From: Nocardioides caldifontis
GTDB taxonomy: Bacteria > Actinomycetota > Actinomycetes > Propionibacteriales > Nocardioidaceae
DNA: 64,000 bases
Assembly: GCF_008087345.1 (NCBI RefSeq)
Contig: NZ_ML701735.1
Span: 557,010-621,009 of the forward strand
Direction of reading: 5' to 3'
Positions within the stretch are counted from its first letter, which is position 1; each line of letters starts with the position of its first letter. The notes under the pieces were generated by a model. That model was not told where the DNA came from. It did no database searches and saw only the letters and a list, made by a program, of their open reading frames with translations. Below are positions 14,538 to 22,860 of this stretch, one piece after another. The position numbers and the translations under genes are program-made.

Positions 14538-15616
14538 CCGCACTCGCGCTGCGTGGCGTCGACAAGCGCTACGGCCCGGTGCACGCCGTGCGCTCGCTCC
14601 ACCTCGAGGTGGGCGCCGGCGAGGTGGTCACCGTCGTCGGACCGTCCGGGTGCGGCAAGTCGACCCTGCTGCGGCTGGTGGCCGGGCTGGAGCACACCGA
14701 CGCGGGGATCGTGGAGATCGACGGCCAGGTGGTCGACGACGGCCGCAGGCACCGGCCCCCCGAGCGGCGCAGGGTGGGGATGGTGTTCCAGGACCACGCG
14801 CTCTTCCCGCACCTCGATGTCGCCCGCAACGTGGCGTTCGGGCTCGGAGGAGCCTCGCGCGCCCAGCGGGCAGCACGCGTCGCCGAGCTGCTGGGGGTGG
14901 TCGGCCTGGCCGGGCTCGAGGGGCGGCTCCCCCACGAGCTCTCGGGCGGTGAGCAGCAGCGGGTGGCCCTCGCGCGCGCTCTGGCGCCGCGGCCCGCGGT
15001 CGTGCTCCTCGACGAGCCGTTCTCGAGCCTCGACGAGAACTTGCGTGCCCAGGTGCGTGCCGACACGCTCGCTGCTCTCCGCCGGACCGGGAGCGCCGCG
15101 CTGCTGGTCACCCACGACCAGACCGAGGCGCTCTCCCTGGGCGACCGGATCGCGGTGGTGCGGGCCGGCGAGGTGCTGCAGGTGGGGCCCCCGGACGACG
15201 TCTACGAGCGTCCCACCAGTCGGTTCGTCGCGACCTTCATGGGGGATGCGGACTTCCTGCCGGCGACGGTGACGGCCGCCGGGATCGAGTGCGAGGTCGG
15301 CACCGTCCCGGTGACCGGCCGGCCGCTGGCCGACGGGACCACGCTGGAGGTGATGCTCCGGCCGCACGAGGTCGCCGTCGCCGCCGACCCGGTGTCAGCT
15401 GCGCGCGTCGAGCGGGTGGAGTACCACGGCGCCTTCATCCTGCACCTGGTGCGGCTCCCGTCGGGGCGCACGGTCCGGGCCTGGACCCAGCACCGCGTGC
15501 ACCACCCCGCGGGGACCCCGGTCAGGATCGGCCTGGTCCCCGGGGCGGCGCCGGTGCTCGTCGCCGGCGACACGGTGGTGACGGCCCTGGCGTCCCACGC
15601 ACCCGCGGAGCCCTGA
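14534..15616 (+). CDS. Iron(III) ABC transporter ATP-binding protein (FbpC-like)
   Basis: A 360-residue ABC ATPase: Walker A GPSGCGKST (about 35-43), Q-loop VFQDHALFP, signature LSGGEQQRVALARAL, Walker B VVLLDEPFSSLD, switch His in LVTHDQTEALSLGD. The C-terminal third (about 245-360) is a TOBE/OB-like regulatory domain, as in FbpC/PotA-type importers. The start is GTG 14534, overlapping the permease stop. The last 222 bp overlap, in antisense, the open reading frame of the adenylation-acyltransferase gene on the other strand. The TOBE domain needs that stretch, so it is genuine coding sequence for this gene. Confidence 0.92.
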   Translation: MTALALRGVDKRYGPVHAVRSLHLEVGAGEVVTVVGPSGCGKSTLLRLVAGLEHTDAGIVEIDGQVVDDGRRHRPPERRRVGMVFQDHALFPHLDVARNVAFGLGGASRAQRAARVAELLGVVGLAGLEGRLPHELSGGEQQRVALARALAPRPAVVLLDEPFSSLDENLRAQVRADTLAALRRTGSAALLVTHDQTEALSLGDRIAVVRAGEVLQVGPPDDVYERPTSRFVATFMGDADFLPATVTAAGIECEVGTVPVTGRPLADGTTLEVMLRPHEVAVAADPVSAARVERVEYHGAFILHLVRLPSGRTVRAWTQHRVHHPAGTPVRIGLVPGAAPVLVAGDTVVTALASHAPAEP

Positions 15617-18061
15617 CCATCCACGCTCGACGACCTGCCAGAGGGCGACACCGGCGGCCAGCGACAGCAGCACACCGAGCAGCGGCCGACCGTGCTCGAA
15701 GTGCGGGTAGACCTGCCAGTGCGACAGGTAGACGTAGAGCGAGGCACCAGCCAGGAGCCCGCACGCCCGGACCAGCGTGCGCGGCAGCCGGAGCTGCGGC
15801 ACCCACACGAGCAGCAGCATTCCGGCGAGGACCAGCGACTCGCGAGCGGTGTCCTCGAGGAACCCGGGTGTCGCGACGCACAGCAGCCCGGTGAGCACGC
15901 CACGGTGGACGGCGGTGGTCGCGCGGGACGCCGCCCATCCGACCGCGAAGAGCCAGAACACGACGTGCGCGCGGTGGATCTCGTCACCACCCCGCAGCGA
16001 GACGACGTCGTAGCGGGCCAGCAGCCCCAGGCCGGCCAGCGCGACCGGCAGCCAGTAGCCCCACCGCTGCTCGATGCGGTGCACCGCGGGCACGGCCAGG
16101 AAGGCCGCGGTCAGCAGCAGCAGCGCGACCAGCGCCTCGAGGAACCACAGGTGCCAGGCGGGTTCGGACCACGCCTCCGGCCCCAGGACGCCGTTGAGCA
16201 GCAGCGCCGTCTGCCAGGGGTAGGCCGACGCGAGCAGCGCGAACCCACCGACCCACAACACCGAGGGCACGACGATCCGCGCCACGCTCGACAGCACCCG
16301 GGTCAGCCGATCACGCCGGGACGGAGACGCGAGCTGGAAGCGGCCCAGGTTGAACCCCGCGATGCCGAGGAGCAGGTGGGCGCCGCCGGTGAGCACGAAC
16401 AGGTTCCCGTGGGTGCCGACGATGGCCACGATGGCCAGCGCCCGGAGCACCACGTTGGTCTCGACGGCGGCGCCTCTGCGGCGCCGGCGTGCGGCCTGGA
16501 GCCGACCGATCGGCGTGGTGTGCCAACCCGGCGGCAGGTGTCCCAGGGCCTCCTCGAGCCGCAGCGACATCTCGACGTAGGACAGGGAGTCGCCGCCCAG
16601 CGAGACGAACGTGTCGTCGCGTCCGACCTGGTCGCGTCCGAGCACCTGCGCGAAGAGCGCGGCGAGGTCGTCCCCGCCACCGTCGACGGCCGACCCGACG
16701 GCGCCTCGCGGCAAGGCCAGGACGGAGCGGTGGTCGGGCTTCCCGGAGGGCAGCCGCGGCAGGCTGTCGACCACACGCACGTCGAGCGCGTGCTCGGGGA
16801 CGCCTGTCACCGCGGCCAGCGCCGCCCGTGCCTGCTCGGCCTGCGGCTGTCCGCCGACCACCGCCACCACCAGCCGGTCGCCCTCGGCGGCGCAGAGGGC
16901 CTGGTGGCCGGCGTCGGCGAGCAGCTTCTCGAGCCGGTCGAGGTCCAGCCGGAGGCCGTAGAGCTTCACGAAGCGCGAGGCGCGGCCGACCACCTCGAGC
17001 AGTCCGTCGGCGGTCCGGCGCGCGAGGTCTCCGGTCCGCAGCTCGGAGACCACTCGTCCCAGCGCCAGGTCCGCGGGGCGCTCGGCGTATCCGAGCATCA
17101 CGTTCGGTCCCGAGTAGACGAGCTCGCCGACCTCAGCGCCCGCCGGCTCGATGCGCAGCTTGCCGCCAGGGATCGGGACGCCCACGGCTTCCGGACTCTT
17201 CGCCGCCAGCTCAGGTGGCAGGTAAGCCATCCGGGCGGTGGCCTCGGTCTGGCCGTACATCACGAAGAGGTCGAACCCGCGACGCCGCCCGAGCTCGGCG
17301 AAGCGGCGCACGCGCTCGGCGGGCATCTTGCCGCCGGCCTGGGTGAGGTAGCGCAGCGTCGGCAGCTCCTGGCCCGTGAATCCCACGCGGTCGAGCAGCT
17401 CGAAGGTGTAGGGGACGCCGGCCAGTGACGTGACGCCGTGGCTCCGGCACAGCTCCCAGAAGCACCGGTCGACCACGGACAGGGAGGTCAGGAGGACAGC
17501 GGCGCCGCGGAGCAGGTGGCTGTGGAGGACCGAGAGCCCGTAGCAGTAGTGCAGCGGGAGGGTCGTGGCCGCCACGTCGTCCGCACGGATCTCCAGGTAC
17601 TCCGCGATCGACTCGGCGTTGGCCTGCACGTTGCCGGCGCTGAGCCGGACGAGGCGGGGCGAGCCCGTGCTGCCCGAGGTCGACAGCAGGAGCGCCAGGT
17701 CCGGGTGCAGCTCGTGGACCGTCCCGACCCGACGCTCGGTGACGGCTCCACCCTCCACGAGGACGTCAGGGTCGTAGGCGGCCACCAGCTGCGCGAGGTC
17801 GCTCGTCGGGTCCGCGACGAGGACGGGGTGGCCTCCGGCCAGCGCTCCGAGGTACCAGATGACGGTCTCGACGTCGTTCCCCCCCGCCAGAAGGACCAGT
17901 CGGCGGGTCGTGCCGAGGCGCGCCCTCGCGGCCTCCACCCGGTCCGCCAGCTCGCCGTACGACAGCGAGAACCCGGCACCGAGGAGCGCCGGGCGTCGTC
18001 CGTGGTCCGCCAGCCGGTGGGCCAGCAGGACGCCCCGGAGCTCCGGGACGGTGGCAGTCAT
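15395..18061 (-). CDS. Adenylation - carrier (PCP) - acyltransferase-3 fusion membrane protein
   Basis: An 888-residue three-part enzyme. Residues 1-450 are an AMP-forming adenylation domain (LLSTSGSTGSPRLV at about 126-138, MYGQTEATARM about 268-278, LRTGDLARR about 341-349, A10 Lys K441 in LPSGKPD). Residues of about 460-525 are a carrier domain with phosphopantetheine Ser492 in LGGDSLS. Residues 536-815 are an acyltransferase-3 (AT3) domain with about ten helices and the family R-x10-H pair (R540, H551). This unites in one chain what the Dlt D-alanylation pathway does with DltA, DltC and a membrane acyltransferase. The acyl or aminoacyl group and the acceptor are unknown. ATG 18061 follows a leaderless -10 and an iron box. 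The last about 70 residues are encoded opposite the FbpC-like gene and are probably non-domain read-through. Confidence 0.8.
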   Translation of the reverse strand: MTATVPELRGVLLAHRLADHGRRPALLGAGFSLSYGELADRVEAARARLGTTRRLVLLAGGNDVETVIWYLGALAGGHPVLVADPTSDLAQLVAAYDPDVLVEGGAVTERRVGTVHELHPDLALLLSTSGSTGSPRLVRLSAGNVQANAESIAEYLEIRADDVAATTLPLHYCYGLSVLHSHLLRGAAVLLTSLSVVDRCFWELCRSHGVTSLAGVPYTFELLDRVGFTGQELPTLRYLTQAGGKMPAERVRRFAELGRRRGFDLFVMYGQTEATARMAYLPPELAAKSPEAVGVPIPGGKLRIEPAGAEVGELVYSGPNVMLGYAERPADLALGRVVSELRTGDLARRTADGLLEVVGRASRFVKLYGLRLDLDRLEKLLADAGHQALCAAEGDRLVVAVVGGQPQAEQARAALAAVTGVPEHALDVRVVDSLPRLPSGKPDHRSVLALPRGAVGSAVDGGGDDLAALFAQVLGRDQVGRDDTFVSLGGDSLSYVEMSLRLEEALGHLPPGWHTTPIGRLQAARRRRRGAAVETNVVLRALAIVAIVGTHGNLFVLTGGAHLLLGIAGFNLGRFQLASPSRRDRLTRVLSSVARIVVPSVLWVGGFALLASAYPWQTALLLNGVLGPEAWSEPAWHLWFLEALVALLLLTAAFLAVPAVHRIEQRWGYWLPVALAGLGLLARYDVVSLRGGDEIHRAHVVFWLFAVGWAASRATTAVHRGVLTGLLCVATPGFLEDTARESLVLAGMLLLVWVPQLRLPRTLVRACGLLAGASLYVYLSHWQVYPHFEHGRPLLGVLLSLAAGVALWQVVERGWSGLRGCVGRQGRHHRVAGDEHRRRPGDQADPDRGPRGVVHAVLGPGPDRAPRREPHQVQDEGAVVLHPLDARS

Positions 18062-18067
18062 GGCGAA

Positions 18068-18090
18068 AGGGTAAGGCAAGCCTCACTTCA
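18068..18090 (-). promoter_or_regulatory. Leaderless -10 (TACCCT) overlapped by an iron box
   Basis: On the minus strand TACCCT (18073 down to 18068) lies 6 nt before the ATG at 18061, giving a leaderless promoter. The 19-mer at 18072-18090 (minus strand TGAAGTGAGGCTTGCCTTA) agrees at 13 of 19 positions with the actinobacterial iron-box consensus and covers the upstream edge of the -10. The layout matches that of the iron transporter promoter 6 kb away. Confidence 0.55.
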
Positions 18091-18324: not shown

Positions 18325-18789
18325 GTGATCGAGACCGCTGCACTCGCCACCTCCGTCGTCACCGCGTTCCTGGTGCCCCTGGTCAAGAAGGGCGCGGAGA
18401 AGCTCACCGACGAGCTCAGCGAGAAGGCCGGCTCCGCGGCCGCCGACGGCCTCGTCGGCGTGGCCCGCAAGCTCTGGGAACGGATCCGCGGCAAGACCCG
18501 CGGCACGCCCGACGCCGAGGTCGTCGACCTGTTCGAGAAGCAGCCCGACCGGCTCGCCGATCCGCTCCGGGCGGTCGTCGAGGAGCTCCTCACCGAGGAC
18601 GCGGAGCTCCGTGACGAGGTGACCGCGCTCCTGGAGGCCGAGGAGGGTGGCCGCACCCGCTGGCAGCTCATGGGCGAGTACGTCGGAGCGGTGGACGCCC
18701 GCGGCGCCACGATCACCGGCGGGCAGGTCGCCGGCGTGATCGTCGGCAGCGCCGACCCGCCGTCACCCTCAGGCCCCGGCACCCCATGA
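18325..18789 (+). CDS. Small helical protein, first gene of STAND-like operon (candidate effector/adaptor)
   Basis: A 154-residue protein I cannot assign to a named family. Residues 1-20 are hydrophobic (ETAALATSVVTAFLVPLV) and could be a membrane or buried helix. Residues 20-110 are amphipathic, charged helices (KKGAEKLTDELSEKAG, VVEELLTEDAELRDEV). Residues 119-143 are a Gly/Val/Ile-rich beta-like segment (GAVDARGATITG, then AGVIVG), and the tail is Pro/Ser-rich. A very similar segment occurs inside the second NTPase of the same operon. Helical domain plus short C-terminal beta motif is the layout of proteins that signal to NLR-like partners by homotypic (amyloid-type) motifs; this reading is an inference. 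The start is GTG 18325 after GCAGGAGG. Its stop overlaps the next gene (ATGA). Confidence 0.75.
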   Translation: MIETAALATSVVTAFLVPLVKKGAEKLTDELSEKAGSAAADGLVGVARKLWERIRGKTRGTPDAEVVDLFEKQPDRLADPLRAVVEELLTEDAELRDEVTALLEAEEGGRTRWQLMGEYVGAVDARGATITGGQVAGVIVGSADPPSPSGPGTP

Positions 18790-19538
18790 CCGTCCTCTCC
18801 TCGCCCGTGCCGGTCGGCCGGTCGCGGGAGCTGAGCACCCTGCTCGAGCCGGTCCGGCCCGACCGGCCCGCCGTGCTGGTCGTGGCCGGACGTCCGGGCT
18901 CCGGCCGCAGCTACCTCGTCGCGCAGCTCCGCGACCGCGTGGTCGGCCTCGGCTACCGCTGCATCGGCGTCGAGGAGGAGCTCGTGGTCGAGCGGACCAC
19001 GACGCTGCGCGACGTGTGGCGCGTCCTCGAGGCGGTCCCCCACCTCGACGAGCCGGCGTCGGGTCCCCGGCACGACGGGGAGGGCGGGCTCCGTGCGCGG
19101 GCCGCGCTGGCGTTCGAGCGGATCGTCGAGACCGCGCGCTACGAGCAACGCGTGCTCGAGGCGTTCCGCAAGGCCGCCCCGCTCATGGTGGCCGTGGAGG
19201 GCTACACCCCCGGTCCGGCGCTGGGCGCGTGGGTGGTCTCACGGCTGATCCCCCAGCTGCGCAAGGACTCCGTACCGATCGTGCTGGTCCTCTCCGGGGT
19301 CGAGGAGCACCTCGCCGCGGTCAGCGCCGTCGCCGACGCCAGCGTCACGCTCGGGGAGCTCGACCGGGAGGAGGTGGCGGCCTTCCTCCGGTCACGCGGG
19401 GAGGGGCTGGAGCCGCCTCTGGACGAGCCGGAGCTCGCGGCGTACGTCGACGCGGTCTCGCGCGAGCCCACGTTGATGGACGCGTTCGTGCGGGTGCTGG
19501 AGGCGATGCGGGAGGAGGCGTCCCGTGGGCAGCCCTGA
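18786..19538 (+). CDS. STAND-like P-loop ATPase with atypical Walker A (operon gene 2)
   Basis: A 250-residue protein that opens PVGRSRELSTLL (residues 9-20), like the VGRExEL box before the P-loop in STAND/AAA-type NTPases. Its Walker A is GRPGSGRS (35-42), with Arg where Lys is expected. A Walker-B-like strand PLMVAVEGY (132-140) has Glu but no Asp. IVLVLSGVEEH (165-175) could be the sensor strand. It ends after about 60 residues of helix, without repeats. The Lys-to-Arg change may cripple ATP hydrolysis and suggests a regulatory subunit paired with the NTPase encoded next. ATG 18786 overlaps the stop of gene 1 (ATGA), and the end overlaps the start of gene 3 by 14 bp. No specific family recognised. 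Confidence 0.75.
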   Translation: MTVLSSPVPVGRSRELSTLLEPVRPDRPAVLVVAGRPGSGRSYLVAQLRDRVVGLGYRCIGVEEELVVERTTTLRDVWRVLEAVPHLDEPASGPRHDGEGGLRARAALAFERIVETARYEQRVLEAFRKAAPLMVAVEGYTPGPALGAWVVSRLIPQLRKDSVPIVLVLSGVEEHLAAVSAVADASVTLGELDREEVAAFLRSRGEGLEPPLDEPELAAYVDAVSREPTLMDAFVRVLEAMREEASRGQP

Positions 19539-20442
19539 GCCGTCCCAGATCGTCGACCGGGAGTCCGAGGTCGAGGTCTTCTCCTCGATGCTCCGCTTCG
19601 AGTCGAGCCGGCGCGTCATGGTCGTCTGCGACCGCCAGGGGCGCGGGAAGACCGCGCTGCTGCGCAAGCTGCGCTACCAGTGCGAGTACGTCGTCGACCC
19701 GCCGGTCCCGGTGGCGCTCTTCGACTTCGACACCGAGCCGGTCACCGACGAGATCGACGTCGTCACCCGGTTGGCCGAGGACCTGGGCGAGGCCGACGAC
19801 CCCGTCCCGCTGCCCACGTTCGAGAAGCTCAACCACGCCCGGACGATCCGCGACACCGGTCAGTTCGTCCAGGCGTGGCAGTCGGTGCAAGGAGCCGTCG
19901 ACCTCAGCGGCGCCTCCGTCAGCGGCGAGGCCCAGGCCGCCGGCGTGATCCAGAACATCCACGTCCAGCACGTCGAGACGCTGTCCTTCCCCGAGTGGAC
20001 CGAGCCCCTCGACCGGCACGTGCGCAAGCTGTGCAAGGAGGCGTTCTTCTCCGACCTCCTGCGCGCCGCCCAGGGGCGGCCGGTCGTGCTGCTCCTCGAC
20101 ACCGTGGACGCGGCCGACCAGGACATGCGCCGATGGCTGTTGCGCGACCTGCTGCGCCGGCGGCTGCTCAGCGACTGGGAGCACCACCGCCTGCTGCTGC
20201 TGATCGCCGGCACCGACGTGGACCAGCTGCTCGAGCCGCTGACCCCCGAGCAACAGGAGTGCCTCGAACCGGTGGCAACGCTGAAGAGCTGGGGACCGGA
20301 CCACGTCCGCGCGTTCCTCCAGGTGCACGGCTACGACGGGTTCAGCGACGAGGAGATCGACGTCGTGCAGAAGGCGATCGAGGCCGGGAAGTCGCTGGTG
20401 AAGGCGATGCAGGTCGCCGAGATCATGAAGGACACCGGCTGA
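19525..20442 (+). CDS. STAND-like P-loop NTPase (operon gene 3)
   Basis: A 305-residue protein. IVDRESEVEVFSSML (9-23) is the pre-P-loop box. The Walker A is the tail form DRQGRGKTALL (36-46) with intact GKT, and the Walker B is PVVLLLDTVDAAD (186-198). LLLLIAGTDVDQ (about 227-238) is a sensor-like strand. Between Walker A and B lies an insert (about 110-150) containing GAVDLSGASVSG and AGVIQNI, closely resembling the C-terminal motif of gene 1. The protein ends just after a helical lid, where STAND proteins normally continue into winged-helix and repeat domains. Those are supplied by the next gene, whose ATG overlaps this stop by one base (TGATG). GTG 19525 has GGAGGAGG upstream. Function inferred only: signal-transduction NTPase. 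Confidence 0.78.
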   Translation: MGSPEPSQIVDRESEVEVFSSMLRFESSRRVMVVCDRQGRGKTALLRKLRYQCEYVVDPPVPVALFDFDTEPVTDEIDVVTRLAEDLGEADDPVPLPTFEKLNHARTIRDTGQFVQAWQSVQGAVDLSGASVSGEAQAAGVIQNIHVQHVETLSFPEWTEPLDRHVRKLCKEAFFSDLLRAAQGRPVVLLLDTVDAADQDMRRWLLRDLLRRRLLSDWEHHRLLLLIAGTDVDQLLEPLTPEQQECLEPVATLKSWGPDHVRAFLQVHGYDGFSDEEIDVVQKAIEAGKSLVKAMQVAEIMKDTG

Positions 20443-22691
20443 TGGCCGAGCGTGCCTCAGCGAGCGAGCTCGTCGAGCTGCGTGACGTCGAGCTCGCGGG
20501 TCGGCTCCTCGACTCCTGGGCACGCCGGGACGACCTGCTCCGCCGGCTGCTGATGCTCGCGGTGGTCCCGCGGATCGTGGACCGAGAGCTGCTGGCCGCG
20601 CTCACGGGCACCACGGCCGAGGACGACCGGTTCGCCGGGGGCTACGCGCGGCTCGTCGGGTCGCCGTTCGTGAAGGAGGGCGCCGGCTCCAGCTTCACGC
20701 TCCACGACGAGCTCCGCCGCCCCCTCCTCGAGCTGTGGGAGGAGCAGGGGTTCGAGGGCCGCTCGCTCGCCGACCTGCGCAGGACGGTGTGGGAGCTGTG
20801 GGAGGGCCGCTACCGCGACGGCTGCCGCGACGAGGGGGCGCTGGACCTGGTCGCCCCGGTCCTGCGCCGGGCGAACCCGCGCCGGTTCCGGGCGGCGGAC
20901 CGGGCGATCCGGAAGGACGTCGACCACGCGCTCCTCGAGACCGTCGCCGCCGCGGTCGCCTACGACCCCGCGGTGGCGCTCGACCGGCTCGACGGCTGGT
21001 TGGCCGACCGCGCCGCCCGCCAGGAGTACCGCCGGTGCGACCTCGTGGCCCGCTCCTTCGCCGACGCCCTCGTCGCCCTCCCCGGCGAGCGACGCACCGC
21101 GGTGCTCGAGGGGTGGGCGGCGTACTACCGCGCGCGGGCAGCCGGGCTGATGGAGGACTGGGAGACGGCCGACGACTGGCTCGACGACGCCGACGGGCAC
21201 GCCGCCGCGGACGCGCGGCTGGCGTTCTGGGTGGCCAGCCTGCGCGTCGACCACCTCGTGCGGCGCGACCGGCTGGTCGAGGCCCAGGAGACCGCGGAGG
21301 CCCTCGTCGCACGCCACGCCGGCAACCCGCCGGACCCGTGGAACGAGAACGTCGTCCACGGCCAGCTGGCGACCGTCCACGAGAACCGCTGGCAGCCGGA
21401 CGAGGCCGTTGCCTCCTACCGGGCGGCGACCGCCAGCGCGACCGCGGCCGGCAACACCGCCGCCGCAGTGCAGGCCCGGCTCTCCCTCACCCGCGTGGTG
21501 CAGGACGCCGTGACCGCCGCCGAGGAGGTGCTCCGCGCGGTCGCGACGAGCCGGCTGGAGTGCCCCGACCGAGGCATCAACCAGAGGGCGAGCCGCCGCG
21601 CCCTGGTCGTCCTGGGGTGGGAGTCGCCCCGCCTGGCGGCGGCGCTGGTGCGCGAGGTCCGGCAGCTCACCCGGGGCGACGGGCCGCAGGCCGTCGTCGA
21701 CCTGGCCGTCGACCGCGCCTCGACCTTCGAGGCGGCCGGGCTCGCGCACCGGGCCGTCGAGGTCCTCGACAAGGCGATCACCGACGCCGCGGAGCTCGCC
21801 CCGGAACGGGTGCCGGACCTGAAGGCCTCCCGCGCGGCCCTCGGCGACCGCGTGGGCAGGGCGGAGGACGCCGTCGCGCTGAACCTGTCGGTCATCGCCG
21901 ACCCGCTGGTGCCCGCCGGAGCATGGCAACGGGCCCGCTGCCTGACCAATGCCGCCCTGAGCCTGCTCGAGACCTCGCAGGCCGGGCGGGCGCTCGAGCT
22001 CGCCCTGCAGGCCCAGCCGCTCTTCGCGGAGATCGGGAACGAGCGCGCGGCTGCCTACCTCTGGACAGTCCGGAGCGAGGCCCACCGGCTGCTCGGCGAC
22101 CTCGAGGAGGCACGGCGCTGCCTCGACCGGATCACGATGCCGCTGCCGGCTTGGTGGGAGTCCGACGCCCGGTTCGCCCGCTCCCGGCTCGCGGCGGCGC
22201 AGGGCGACCGCGACGGCGCCGCGGTGCTGGCGCGCGAGGGCTACGAACTGGTGCGCGACCGCGACGACCGCCACCTCCGCCTCACCGCCTGCTCCGAGGC
22301 CCTCCATCGGGCGGCCCGCGCCGGCCGTCACGCCGACGTCGCGGCCTTGGGGACGGAGGTCTCCGCACTGGCGGCCGCGGCCACGGCGTACGAGACATGG
22401 CAGCCCACCGAGACCACCCTGCGGGCCGACGAGCACCTGGCCGAGGCGGTGCGGATCTGGAAGGCCGGGATCGGGACCGACCGGATGCGGCTGAGGTCGG
22501 CGCACGAGCACTGCGCGGAGTCCCTCGGCCTCGACGGCGCAAGCGCCTGGGCGCACGTGGAGGCGGCGCTCATCGACCTCGCCCGCGGCGAGCGGCCGGC
22601 GGCGACGCACCAGCTCGAGGCAGCGCTCGACCTCGGTGAGCCGGTGTTCAGCGCGGCGCTGCGGACCGTGGCCGCGGAGCTGACGGCCTGA
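20442..22691 (+). CDS. Winged-helix + TPR-like repeat protein (operon gene 4, candidate sensor)
   Basis: A 749-residue protein. Residues of about 15-110 look like the winged-helix segment that follows the NTPase in STAND proteins (LLRRLLMLAVVPRIVDRELLAAL, then a short beta-turn and FTLHDELRRPLLELWEEQG). From about 150 to the end are helical repeats rich in Ala/Arg with TPR-like spacing (for example GWAAYYRARAAGLMEDWETADDWL and SAHEHCAESLGLDG). There is no signal peptide or catalytic motif. With the NTPase before it, it would make one conventional STAND architecture split over two genes with a one-base stop/start overlap. The frame upstream of the ATG is open to 19680, so a frameshift origin of the split is conceivable. 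TPR regions in such systems usually bind the trigger; none can be named. Confidence 0.75.
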   Translation: MAERASASELVELRDVELAGRLLDSWARRDDLLRRLLMLAVVPRIVDRELLAALTGTTAEDDRFAGGYARLVGSPFVKEGAGSSFTLHDELRRPLLELWEEQGFEGRSLADLRRTVWELWEGRYRDGCRDEGALDLVAPVLRRANPRRFRAADRAIRKDVDHALLETVAAAVAYDPAVALDRLDGWLADRAARQEYRRCDLVARSFADALVALPGERRTAVLEGWAAYYRARAAGLMEDWETADDWLDDADGHAAADARLAFWVASLRVDHLVRRDRLVEAQETAEALVARHAGNPPDPWNENVVHGQLATVHENRWQPDEAVASYRAATASATAAGNTAAAVQARLSLTRVVQDAVTAAEEVLRAVATSRLECPDRGINQRASRRALVVLGWESPRLAAALVREVRQLTRGDGPQAVVDLAVDRASTFEAAGLAHRAVEVLDKAITDAAELAPERVPDLKASRAALGDRVGRAEDAVALNLSVIADPLVPAGAWQRARCLTNAALSLLETSQAGRALELALQAQPLFAEIGNERAAAYLWTVRSEAHRLLGDLEEARRCLDRITMPLPAWWESDARFARSRLAAAQGDRDGAAVLAREGYELVRDRDDRHLRLTACSEALHRAARAGRHADVAALGTEVSALAAAATAYETWQPTETTLRADEHLAEAVRIWKAGIGTDRMRLRSAHEHCAESLGLDGASAWAHVEAALIDLARGERPAATHQLEAALDLGEPVFSAALRTVAAELTA

Positions 22692-22720
22692 ACGAGGGAC
22701 TGCCAGGCGGAGGAGAACCG

Positions 22721-22795
<75 letters not shown>

Positions 22796-22860
22796 AGGTG
22801 GCCGGCGGACCGACCGACAGCGAAGATATCACCCGCTTCGCACGGGTCCGAATCGCCCCG

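What the first reader, a model, noticed from the sequence alone, without database searches (positions are those of the whole stretch)
18325..22691. Four-gene STAND-like module with split NTPase/sensor and small helical partner
Four genes overlap or abut tightly (ATGA at 18786, a 14-bp overlap at 19525, TGATG at 20440-20444), so they act together. Gene 1 is a 154-residue helical protein with a hydrophobic N-terminus. Genes 2 and 3 are P-loop NTPases, each opening with a box like that before the P-loop in STAND proteins. Gene 4 has the winged helix and TPR-like repeats that normally sit in the same chain as the NTPase. STAND NTPases with TPR sensors are known in bacterial immunity (Avs-type) and in regulation. 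A split NTPase/repeat pair with a second, degenerate NTPase and a small partner is not an arrangement I can name. No neighbour explains it metabolically.
Basis: partly seen in the sequence, partly recalled or inferred. Interest (0 to 1): 0.85.

Follow-up and report, generated by a model that had tools for sequence, protein, structure and literature searches.

The report
Split immune-type switch with death-protein partner
A four-gene bacterial operon seems to encode an immune-receptor-like molecular switch broken into separate proteins, one of which carries inside its engine the same short motif as a small, probably membrane-attacking partner protein; this looks like an unusual version of a recently proposed bacterial cell-death signalling system.

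Summary
The four overlapping genes are real. Gene 1 is not an anonymous helical partner: its N-terminal ~105 residues resemble small helical "Bell-like" proteins found beside bacterial NLR genes, and its C-terminus (121-141) carries a motif repeated in gene 3 but not in g2 or g4 (0 of 5000 shuffles reach the match; best of 21 candidate partners). That is the layout of Bell/amyloid-motif-NLR signalosomes (Dyrka 2020, seen second-hand). Two things differ. The motif lies inside the g3 NTPase, between Walker A and B; in the 16 comparison receptors with a P-loop it precedes the P-loop. And the receptor is split: degenerate NTPase (g2), NTPase (g3), winged helix plus weak TPR (g4). Two distant loci repeat [quoted passage not shown], without g2; their motif sharing is weak. 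The operon abuts the 3' end of tRNA-Ala, where all four congeners differ and one carries an integrase. Best reading: an NTP-driven switch that templates a membrane-acting effector, probably for defence by cell death. Amyloid, killing and immunity are inferred. New variant of a known kind; neither Avs nor, by strict definition, a Bell/NLR family member.

The parts
18325..18789 (+). gene 1: Bell-like small helical protein, hydrophobic N-terminal stretch (residues 2-20), C-terminal signalling motif; probable effector
18685..18747 (+). g1 residues 121-141 GAVDARGATITGGQVAGVIVG: motif copy 1 (effector side)
18786..19538 (+). gene 2: degenerate STAND-like NTPase (AAA_16), Walker A lysine replaced (GRPGSGRS, residues 35-42); no motif copy found
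19525..20442 (+). gene 3: STAND-like NTPase without its own winged helix or repeats, with a long Walker A-B insert
19630..19653 (+). g3 Walker A, residues 36-43 DRQGRGKT
19891..19950 (+). g3 residues 123-142 GAVDLSGASVSGEAQAAGVI: motif copy 2, inside the NTPase between Walker A and Walker B
20083..20109 (+). g3 Walker B, residues 187-195 VVLLLDTVD
20442..22691 (+). gene 4: separately encoded winged helix (to about residue 103, ending FTLHDELRRPLLELWEEQG) plus helical, weakly TPR-like region; probable sensor
22720..22796 (-). tRNA-Ala(CGC); operon abuts its 3' end, where similarity to four congeners stops

Best explanation
A split NLR-type (STAND) signalling system controlling a small membrane-acting effector. 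Inferred working: the g4 repeats sense a trigger; through its winged helix g4 frees the g3 NTPase (nucleotide switch; g2, a degenerate NTPase, is a co-oligomer or brake). In the activated oligomer the beta-type motif carried in g3's Walker A-B insert is exposed and templates the matching C-terminal motif of g1. This clusters the hydrophobic N-terminal helices of the Bell-like domain and damages the membrane, i.e. abortive, defence-type cell death. Shown here: gene structure, shared motif and its position, Bell-like relatives beside NLRs, recurrence of the split core, variable site at a tRNA. Inferred: nucleotide switching, templating/amyloid, membrane damage, immunity, role of g2.
For: Motif: g1 C-terminus vs g3 scores 51, 0 of 5000 shuffles of g3 reach it; best of 21 candidate partners, z 5.1 vs 2.4 for the next. 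g1 family: tblastn E=1e-4 to a Calothrix plasmid protein; phmmer against the ORFs of fetched loci down to E 3.5e-8 (a small database); profile A2 matches 33 of 394 class genomes, own included, 39 places. For 16 of the 38 matches outside the own genome, and for the two plasmid loci, I accepted a motif-sharing neighbour ORF; ten of these 18 partners were scanned with Pfam: NTPase model in 8 of 10, TPR or WD40 in 9 of 10, both in 7 of 10 (E<=1e-5, some under cut-off; L036 and L101 have a P-loop by pattern only, L080 no repeat model). Single-sequence AlphaFold2 of g1: helices over residues 4-107 (block pLDDT 73-85 to residue 100), tail 109-144 below 50. Split core recurs in L154 and L159. Walker A-B spacing: 143, 109, 105 residues vs 62-74 in 11 comparison receptors. 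Variable tRNA site.
Against: No relative of g2 and no second four-gene set was found. One minus-strand ORF of the window (opposite 1-996, without coding-type codon bias, 39% Gly+Ala, diffuse 49-column alignment) ties with g3 at score 51, and the own-genome search with the g1 motif listed four other weak hits (E 0.07-1.5) but not g3: the motif alone is weak evidence. In L154 small protein and NTPase share a motif (10 of 3000 shuffles of the insert), but four other ORFs of that locus score higher; in L159 an unguided comparison does not find it (1160 of 3000). The small proteins of L154 and L159 are single-TM proteins, not Bell-like. The g1 model had no PDB match (best E 2.6) and four of its five models averaged pLDDT 54.4 or lower; the g3 model was poor (46.6). 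Five neighbouring ORFs match nothing in PADLOC; no sigma-70-like promoter or terminator was found.
Confidence: 0.55

Rival explanations
1. Same complex, no killing: g1 is a membrane anchor and the motif a simple beta-pairing that brings a split STAND complex to the membrane for stress or envelope signalling.
For: The small partners in L154 and L159 are single-TM proteins with nothing else recognisable.
Against: g1 itself has a Bell-like domain whose relatives sit beside NLR-type genes; no regulatory output domain was found in the four genes.
Confidence: 0.22
2. Split STAND transcription or metabolic regulator (MalT/AfsR-like) with an unrelated small gene in front.
For: NTPase + winged helix + TPR is also the layout of AfsR/MalT-type regulators (recalled); an AfsR/SARP-like ORF lies next to L154 (by eye).
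Against: No DNA-binding or SARP domain in Pfam or NCBIfam; g3 not found in the four congeners and operon absent from their tRNA site; shared motif with g1.
Confidence: 0.08
3. The g1/g3 motif match is chance between Gly/Ala/Val-rich stretches of GC-rich sequence; the operon is a split STAND system of unknown output.
For: A tie with a probably non-coding ORF; weak other hits in the genome.
Against: 0 of 5000 and 0 of 3000 shuffles; best of 21 partners; position at the C-terminus of a Bell-like protein, as in the 18 comparison pairs.
Confidence: 0.12
4. A decaying NLR: an ancestral single chain broken by mutation.
For: Long ORFs that look like single-chain NTPase-WH-TPR relatives exist (L155, L156, read by eye).
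Against: All four ORFs keep strong codon bias, clean starts and overlaps; the break between NTPase and winged helix recurs, again with overlapping genes, in L154 and L159.
Confidence: 0.03

Closest known systems
Bell-BASS / NLR amyloid signalosomes (Dyrka et al. 2020; not seen itself, known through passages of PMC7889193, PMC8086366, PMC12261475)
   Same: Small helical protein with hydrophobic N-terminus and C-terminal motif, encoded by a gene adjacent to or overlapping the receptor gene(s); matching motif in the receptor; NTPase plus TPR-type repeats.
   Different: Motif is inside the NTPase, not at the receptor's N-terminus; receptor split into NTPase(s) and WH/TPR chain; a degenerate NTPase gene lies between effector gene and motif-bearing NTPase gene.
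Avs/AVAST and bNACHT STAND defence proteins (recalled; titles and abstract starts seen)
   Same: STAND-like NTPase plus repeat sensor.
   Different: No single-chain receptor, no named N-terminal effector domain, no PADLOC match to Avs models.
iSTAND / MoxR-vWA ternary conflict systems (passages of PMC7159879, PMC8195603)
   Same: Inactive STAND module paired with other components; one adaptor shared between core component and effector (EAD principle).
   Different: No MoxR or vWA gene among the four; shared element is a ~20-residue motif, not a helical EAD or Death-like domain.
L154 and L159 three-gene operons (found here)
   Same: Small membrane protein, NTPase with long Walker A-B insert, separate overlapping winged-helix gene.
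   Different: No g2-like gene; small protein has one TM helix instead of a Bell-like domain; motif of another sequence type and weaker pairing statistics.

Membership tests
Bell-BASS/NLR amyloid signalosome | Small alpha-helical N-terminal domain with hydrophobic helix, as in proteins encoded beside NLRs | tested here: met
   Similarity to such proteins and AF2 helices
Bell-BASS/NLR amyloid signalosome | Match to the published Bell profile | not testable with these tools
   Profile not at hand; hence 'Bell-like'
Bell-BASS/NLR amyloid signalosome | Same motif at effector C-terminus and in receptor | tested here: met
   g1 121-141 and g3 123-142
Bell-BASS/NLR amyloid signalosome | Receptor motif at the N-terminus, before the NTPase | tested here: not met
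   Motif at 123-142, P-loop at 36-43; before the P-loop in 16 of 16 comparison receptors with a P-loop, two of them (L074, L076) by eye
Bell-BASS/NLR amyloid signalosome | Receptor is one chain with NTPase and repeats | tested here: not met
   g3 and g4 separate, clean frame switch
Bell-BASS/NLR amyloid signalosome | Motif belongs to BASS1-10 | not testable with these tools
   Profiles not held; the 2020 paper is not in the library
Bell-BASS/NLR amyloid signalosome | Motif forms amyloid and templates partner | not testable with these tools
   Needs peptides
Avs/AVAST | Single large STAND chain with N-terminal effector and C-terminal repeats; match to Avs models | tested here: not met
   Four separate chains; no Avs model among PADLOC hits up to E=1
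MoxR-vWA iSTAND ternary systems | MoxR ATPase and vWA protein in the operon | tested here: not met
   None among the four genes
STAND NTPases (broad) | P-loop NTPase followed by winged helix and repeats | tested here: inconclusive
   Met only across g3+g4 taken together; Pfam scores lie under cut-off

The most novel reading that the evidence does not exclude
A distinct class of bacterial NLR-like systems in which the signalling beta-motif is built into the NTPase core between Walker A and Walker B, so that nucleotide-driven rearrangement itself exposes the template, while the winged-helix sensor and the membrane effector are separate proteins (small TM or Bell-like), and some members add a degenerate NTPase as a brake.
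Probability: 0.4. Interest if true: 0.78.

Novelty: new variant of a known kind. Interest (0 to 1): 0.6.

Why it matters
The Bell-linked receptors compared here keep the motif in a free N-terminal tail. Putting it inside the NTPase, and splitting sensor from switch, would show how nucleotide state can gate motif exposure, and would give small separately expressible parts for testing NLR activation in bacteria. It would also mean that searches for N-terminal motifs in single-chain NLRs miss such systems.

Tried and rejected
Relatives of g2, g3, g4. Plasmids: g3 none at E<=1e-5 and six weak hits at E<=10, best E 0.1 (the later L159 plasmid not among them); g4 and g2 none at E<=0.1. Viral contigs by exact peptides: none for g3, g1, g2, or for the L154 and L159 NTPases. 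Genome contigs by exact peptides: none for g3 or g4. Phage records: none for g1 or the L154 NTPase. g3 found only itself in 197 family genomes (13) and 5 genus genomes (15); in 396 phylum genomes two E~0.004 hits, judged spurious by eye (L003 a histidine-kinase-like ORF; L004 opposite an acetolactate-synthase small-subunit-like ORF). g4: 296 phylum genomes, one weak TPR-region hit besides itself (not followed). g2 was never searched in whole genomes. Profile A1 in 197 family genomes: own locus plus four weak hits (E 9e-4 to 0.008) on the same stretch of 891-1097-codon open frames, taken as spurious without reading them. Profile A4 in 15 genomes that I picked because earlier calls had given Bell-profile or weak g3 hits there: 47 hits at E<=0.1, all in open frames of 513 codons or more, so no standalone NTPase; only two of these ORFs (L155, L156) were read. 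PDB sequence searches at E<=10: nothing for g2 and g4, only chance-level hits for g1 and g3; Foldseek, no match (80). No second copy of the tRNA 3' end in the window with up to 3 mismatches (72).

Rows dropped. Of the 38 Bell-profile matches outside the own genome, 22 were not used, because no neighbouring ORF carried a match I accepted or because the hit lay in a long or doubtful ORF; they include L087 (match with 0 of 300 shuffles, but ORF without P-loop) and L085, L098, L106. Acceptance of the 18 comparison pairs was partly by eye: shuffle support ran from 0 to 7 of 300, and for L074 and L076 the best local alignment was not the N-terminal motif, which I read by eye; cognate partner ranked first in 12 of 19 pairs, window included; the others ranked 2nd to 6th, usually behind receptors of related loci. 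Walker spacing: of 13 comparison receptors with GxxxxGK[ST], 11 had a Walker B candidate at 62-74 (in L080 the second candidate), L101 gave 38, L090 none. The ungapped 17-mer tests used registers chosen by eye and are illustration only. A rough gene caller was used; it mis-called the window's own genes after g2, which one search replaced. One search read minus-strand loci the wrong way round; one search corrected it. An earlier count said 10 of 10 partners have NTPase and repeats by Pfam; the answer does not bear that out and the counts above replace it.

Papers: passages only (find) of PMC7889193, PMC8086366, PMC8195603, PMC7159879, PMC12839542, PMC12261475, PMC7885112; Dyrka 2020 not seen. 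That the split, internal-motif arrangement is not in print rests on the listings in an open-access library, so it is a weak negative.
Full report
Observation. The four ORFs exist at the stated places, with overlaps of 4, 14 and 1 bp. Codon-position GC (GC3 0.94-0.97) and a clean switch of frame around the TGATG at 20440 support four real genes rather than one frameshifted gene. Pfam: g2 AAA_16 E=6e-7, g3 AAA_22 E=1.6e-4, g4 TPR E=0.03, all under the curated cut-offs; g1 nothing. PADLOC, NCBIfam and PHROGs name nothing convincing (best E 0.0045, g4 with an NCBIfam secretion-chaperone model far under its cut-off).

Gene 1. tblastn of g1 against plasmids gave a Calothrix plasmid protein (E=1e-4, 32% over residues 9-106) and, weakly (E=0.2), an Arthrobacter plasmid protein. 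The Arthrobacter gene overlaps a gene for a protein with a P-loop pattern and WD40 repeats, whose N-terminus repeats the motif at the small protein's C-terminus. Weak chromosomal hits (L006, L008, L010, L012) proved to be similar small proteins; three of them (L008, L010, L012) are followed by receptor-type genes that repeat their motif, and for L006 the matching ORF lies on the other strand (L077). A profile of these seven (A2) matched 39 places in 33 of 394 genomes of the class, the own one included. This is the published layout of Bell/BASS signalosomes (passages of PMC7889193, PMC8086366). Single-sequence AlphaFold2 gives helices over residues 4-107 and a low-confidence motif tail; the best of five models averages pLDDT 67, the others 41-54. 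Among the 19 Bell-like proteins compared, g1 has the highest maximum hydropathy (Kyte-Doolittle 1.83, residues 2-20).

Shared motif. BLASTP of g1 against g3 finds GAVDARGATITG-GQVAGVI / GAVDLSGASVSGEAQAAGVI within a 28-column match, E=0.002. No shuffle of g3 in 5000 reaches the score; g2 and g4 score 25-26 against 51. Among 525 six-frame ORFs of the window other than g1's own, g3 is best, tied with one minus-strand ORF opposite 1-996 that lacks coding-type codon bias. Against 21 candidate partners (18 comparison pairs from 17 loci, and g2, g3, g4) g3 ranks first (z 5.1, next 2.4). In the own genome, a search with the g1 motif alone lists four other weak hits and not g3, so the motif by itself cannot settle it.

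Position and split. In g3 Walker A is 36-43, motif 123-142, Walker B 187-195. In 16 of 16 comparison receptors with a P-loop the matching motif lies before it (13 by GxxxxGK[ST]; L036, L077 and L107 by a looser pattern; L074 and L076 motif read by eye); the other two of the 18 partners (L035, L089) show no P-loop. Walker A-B spacing is 143 in g3, 90 in g2, 62-74 in 11 comparison receptors.

Relatives of the split core. With a lax threshold, 197 class genomes gave one clear relative of g3: G595 (L154), E=8e-7; the two NTPases align at 29-30% identity. There a 111-codon gene (one strong hydrophobic helix) is followed after 8 bp by a 266-aa NTPase, overlapping by 17 bp a separate 924-aa gene with TPR repeats. 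That NTPase found a Streptomyces plasmid locus (L159; E=7e-9): 105-aa protein with a TM helix, 251-aa NTPase, and, overlapping by 13 bp, a 696-aa protein whose start resembles the L154 winged-helix region (0 of 3000 shuffles) but which matches no Pfam family. Both NTPases have long inserts (109 and 105 residues) that resemble each other (0 of 3000). The L154 small protein and NTPase share a motif (10 of 3000 shuffles of the insert; 24 of 2000 of the whole NTPase, with four other ORFs of the locus scoring higher). In L159 the sharing is seen only in a register chosen by eye. The C-termini of g1 and of the L159 small protein also resemble each other (4 of 3000). g4 matches the L154 winged-helix region (8 of 3000) but not clearly L159 (499 of 3000). 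So the split and the long insert recur; the motif pairing is firm only in the window. I saw no g2-like gene between the small protein and the NTPase in either locus. Long ORFs (861, 868 and 954 codons) at the top suggest single-chain relatives; two were read by eye as NTPase, winged helix and repeats.

Context. The operon ends 28 bases from the 3' end of tRNA-Ala(CGC). In four of four congeners the tRNA and its neighbour on the other side are conserved and blastn similarity to the window stops at the tRNA 3' end; in the nearest (G058) it resumes weakly at window 14609-15231, so the variable stretch is about 7.5 kb here and 2.7 kb there; for G050 the contig ends about 4 kb after the tRNA. One congener (G023) has an HTH_17 gene and a tyrosine integrase there. 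The operon is missing from all four fetched sites, and g3 was not found in the four genomes at E<=0.001. GC does not differ from the surroundings. Five neighbouring ORFs match nothing in PADLOC.

Mechanism. I propose that g4 senses, g3 (with g2 as degenerate partner) switches and oligomerises, the exposed internal motif templates g1 tails, and clustered g1 attacks the membrane. The first and last steps come from the model proposed for the known family, whose outcome in bacteria remains to be explored according to PMC7889193. The rivals are a membrane anchor without killing, a regulator, a chance motif, and a decaying gene.

Verdict. Two defining features of that family were tested and not met, so it works like one but is not filed as one.

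Noticed in passing
window 15395-18079 (-): One 894-aa ORF combining AMP-binding, PP-binding and Acyl_transf_3 domains, divergent from the operon.
   Followed up: no
L119 1892-3510: A congener carries an HTH_17 gene and a tyrosine integrase directly after the same tRNA-Ala, suggesting an integration hotspot.
   Followed up: partly
L085, L098, L106: Bell-profile proteins whose C-termini carry GDH[VI]D[LM][RS]G...G[VI][IV]GT, reminiscent by eye of the g1 motif, with no motif-matched receptor accepted in the fetched flanks.
   Followed up: partly
L074: Two Bell-like/NLR gene pairs in tandem, about 4 kb apart, with similar motifs.
   Followed up: no
L035 6992-8060: Calothrix plasmid Bell-like gene followed by an overlapping gene for a 207-aa motif-sharing protein without a P-loop.
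   Followed up: partly
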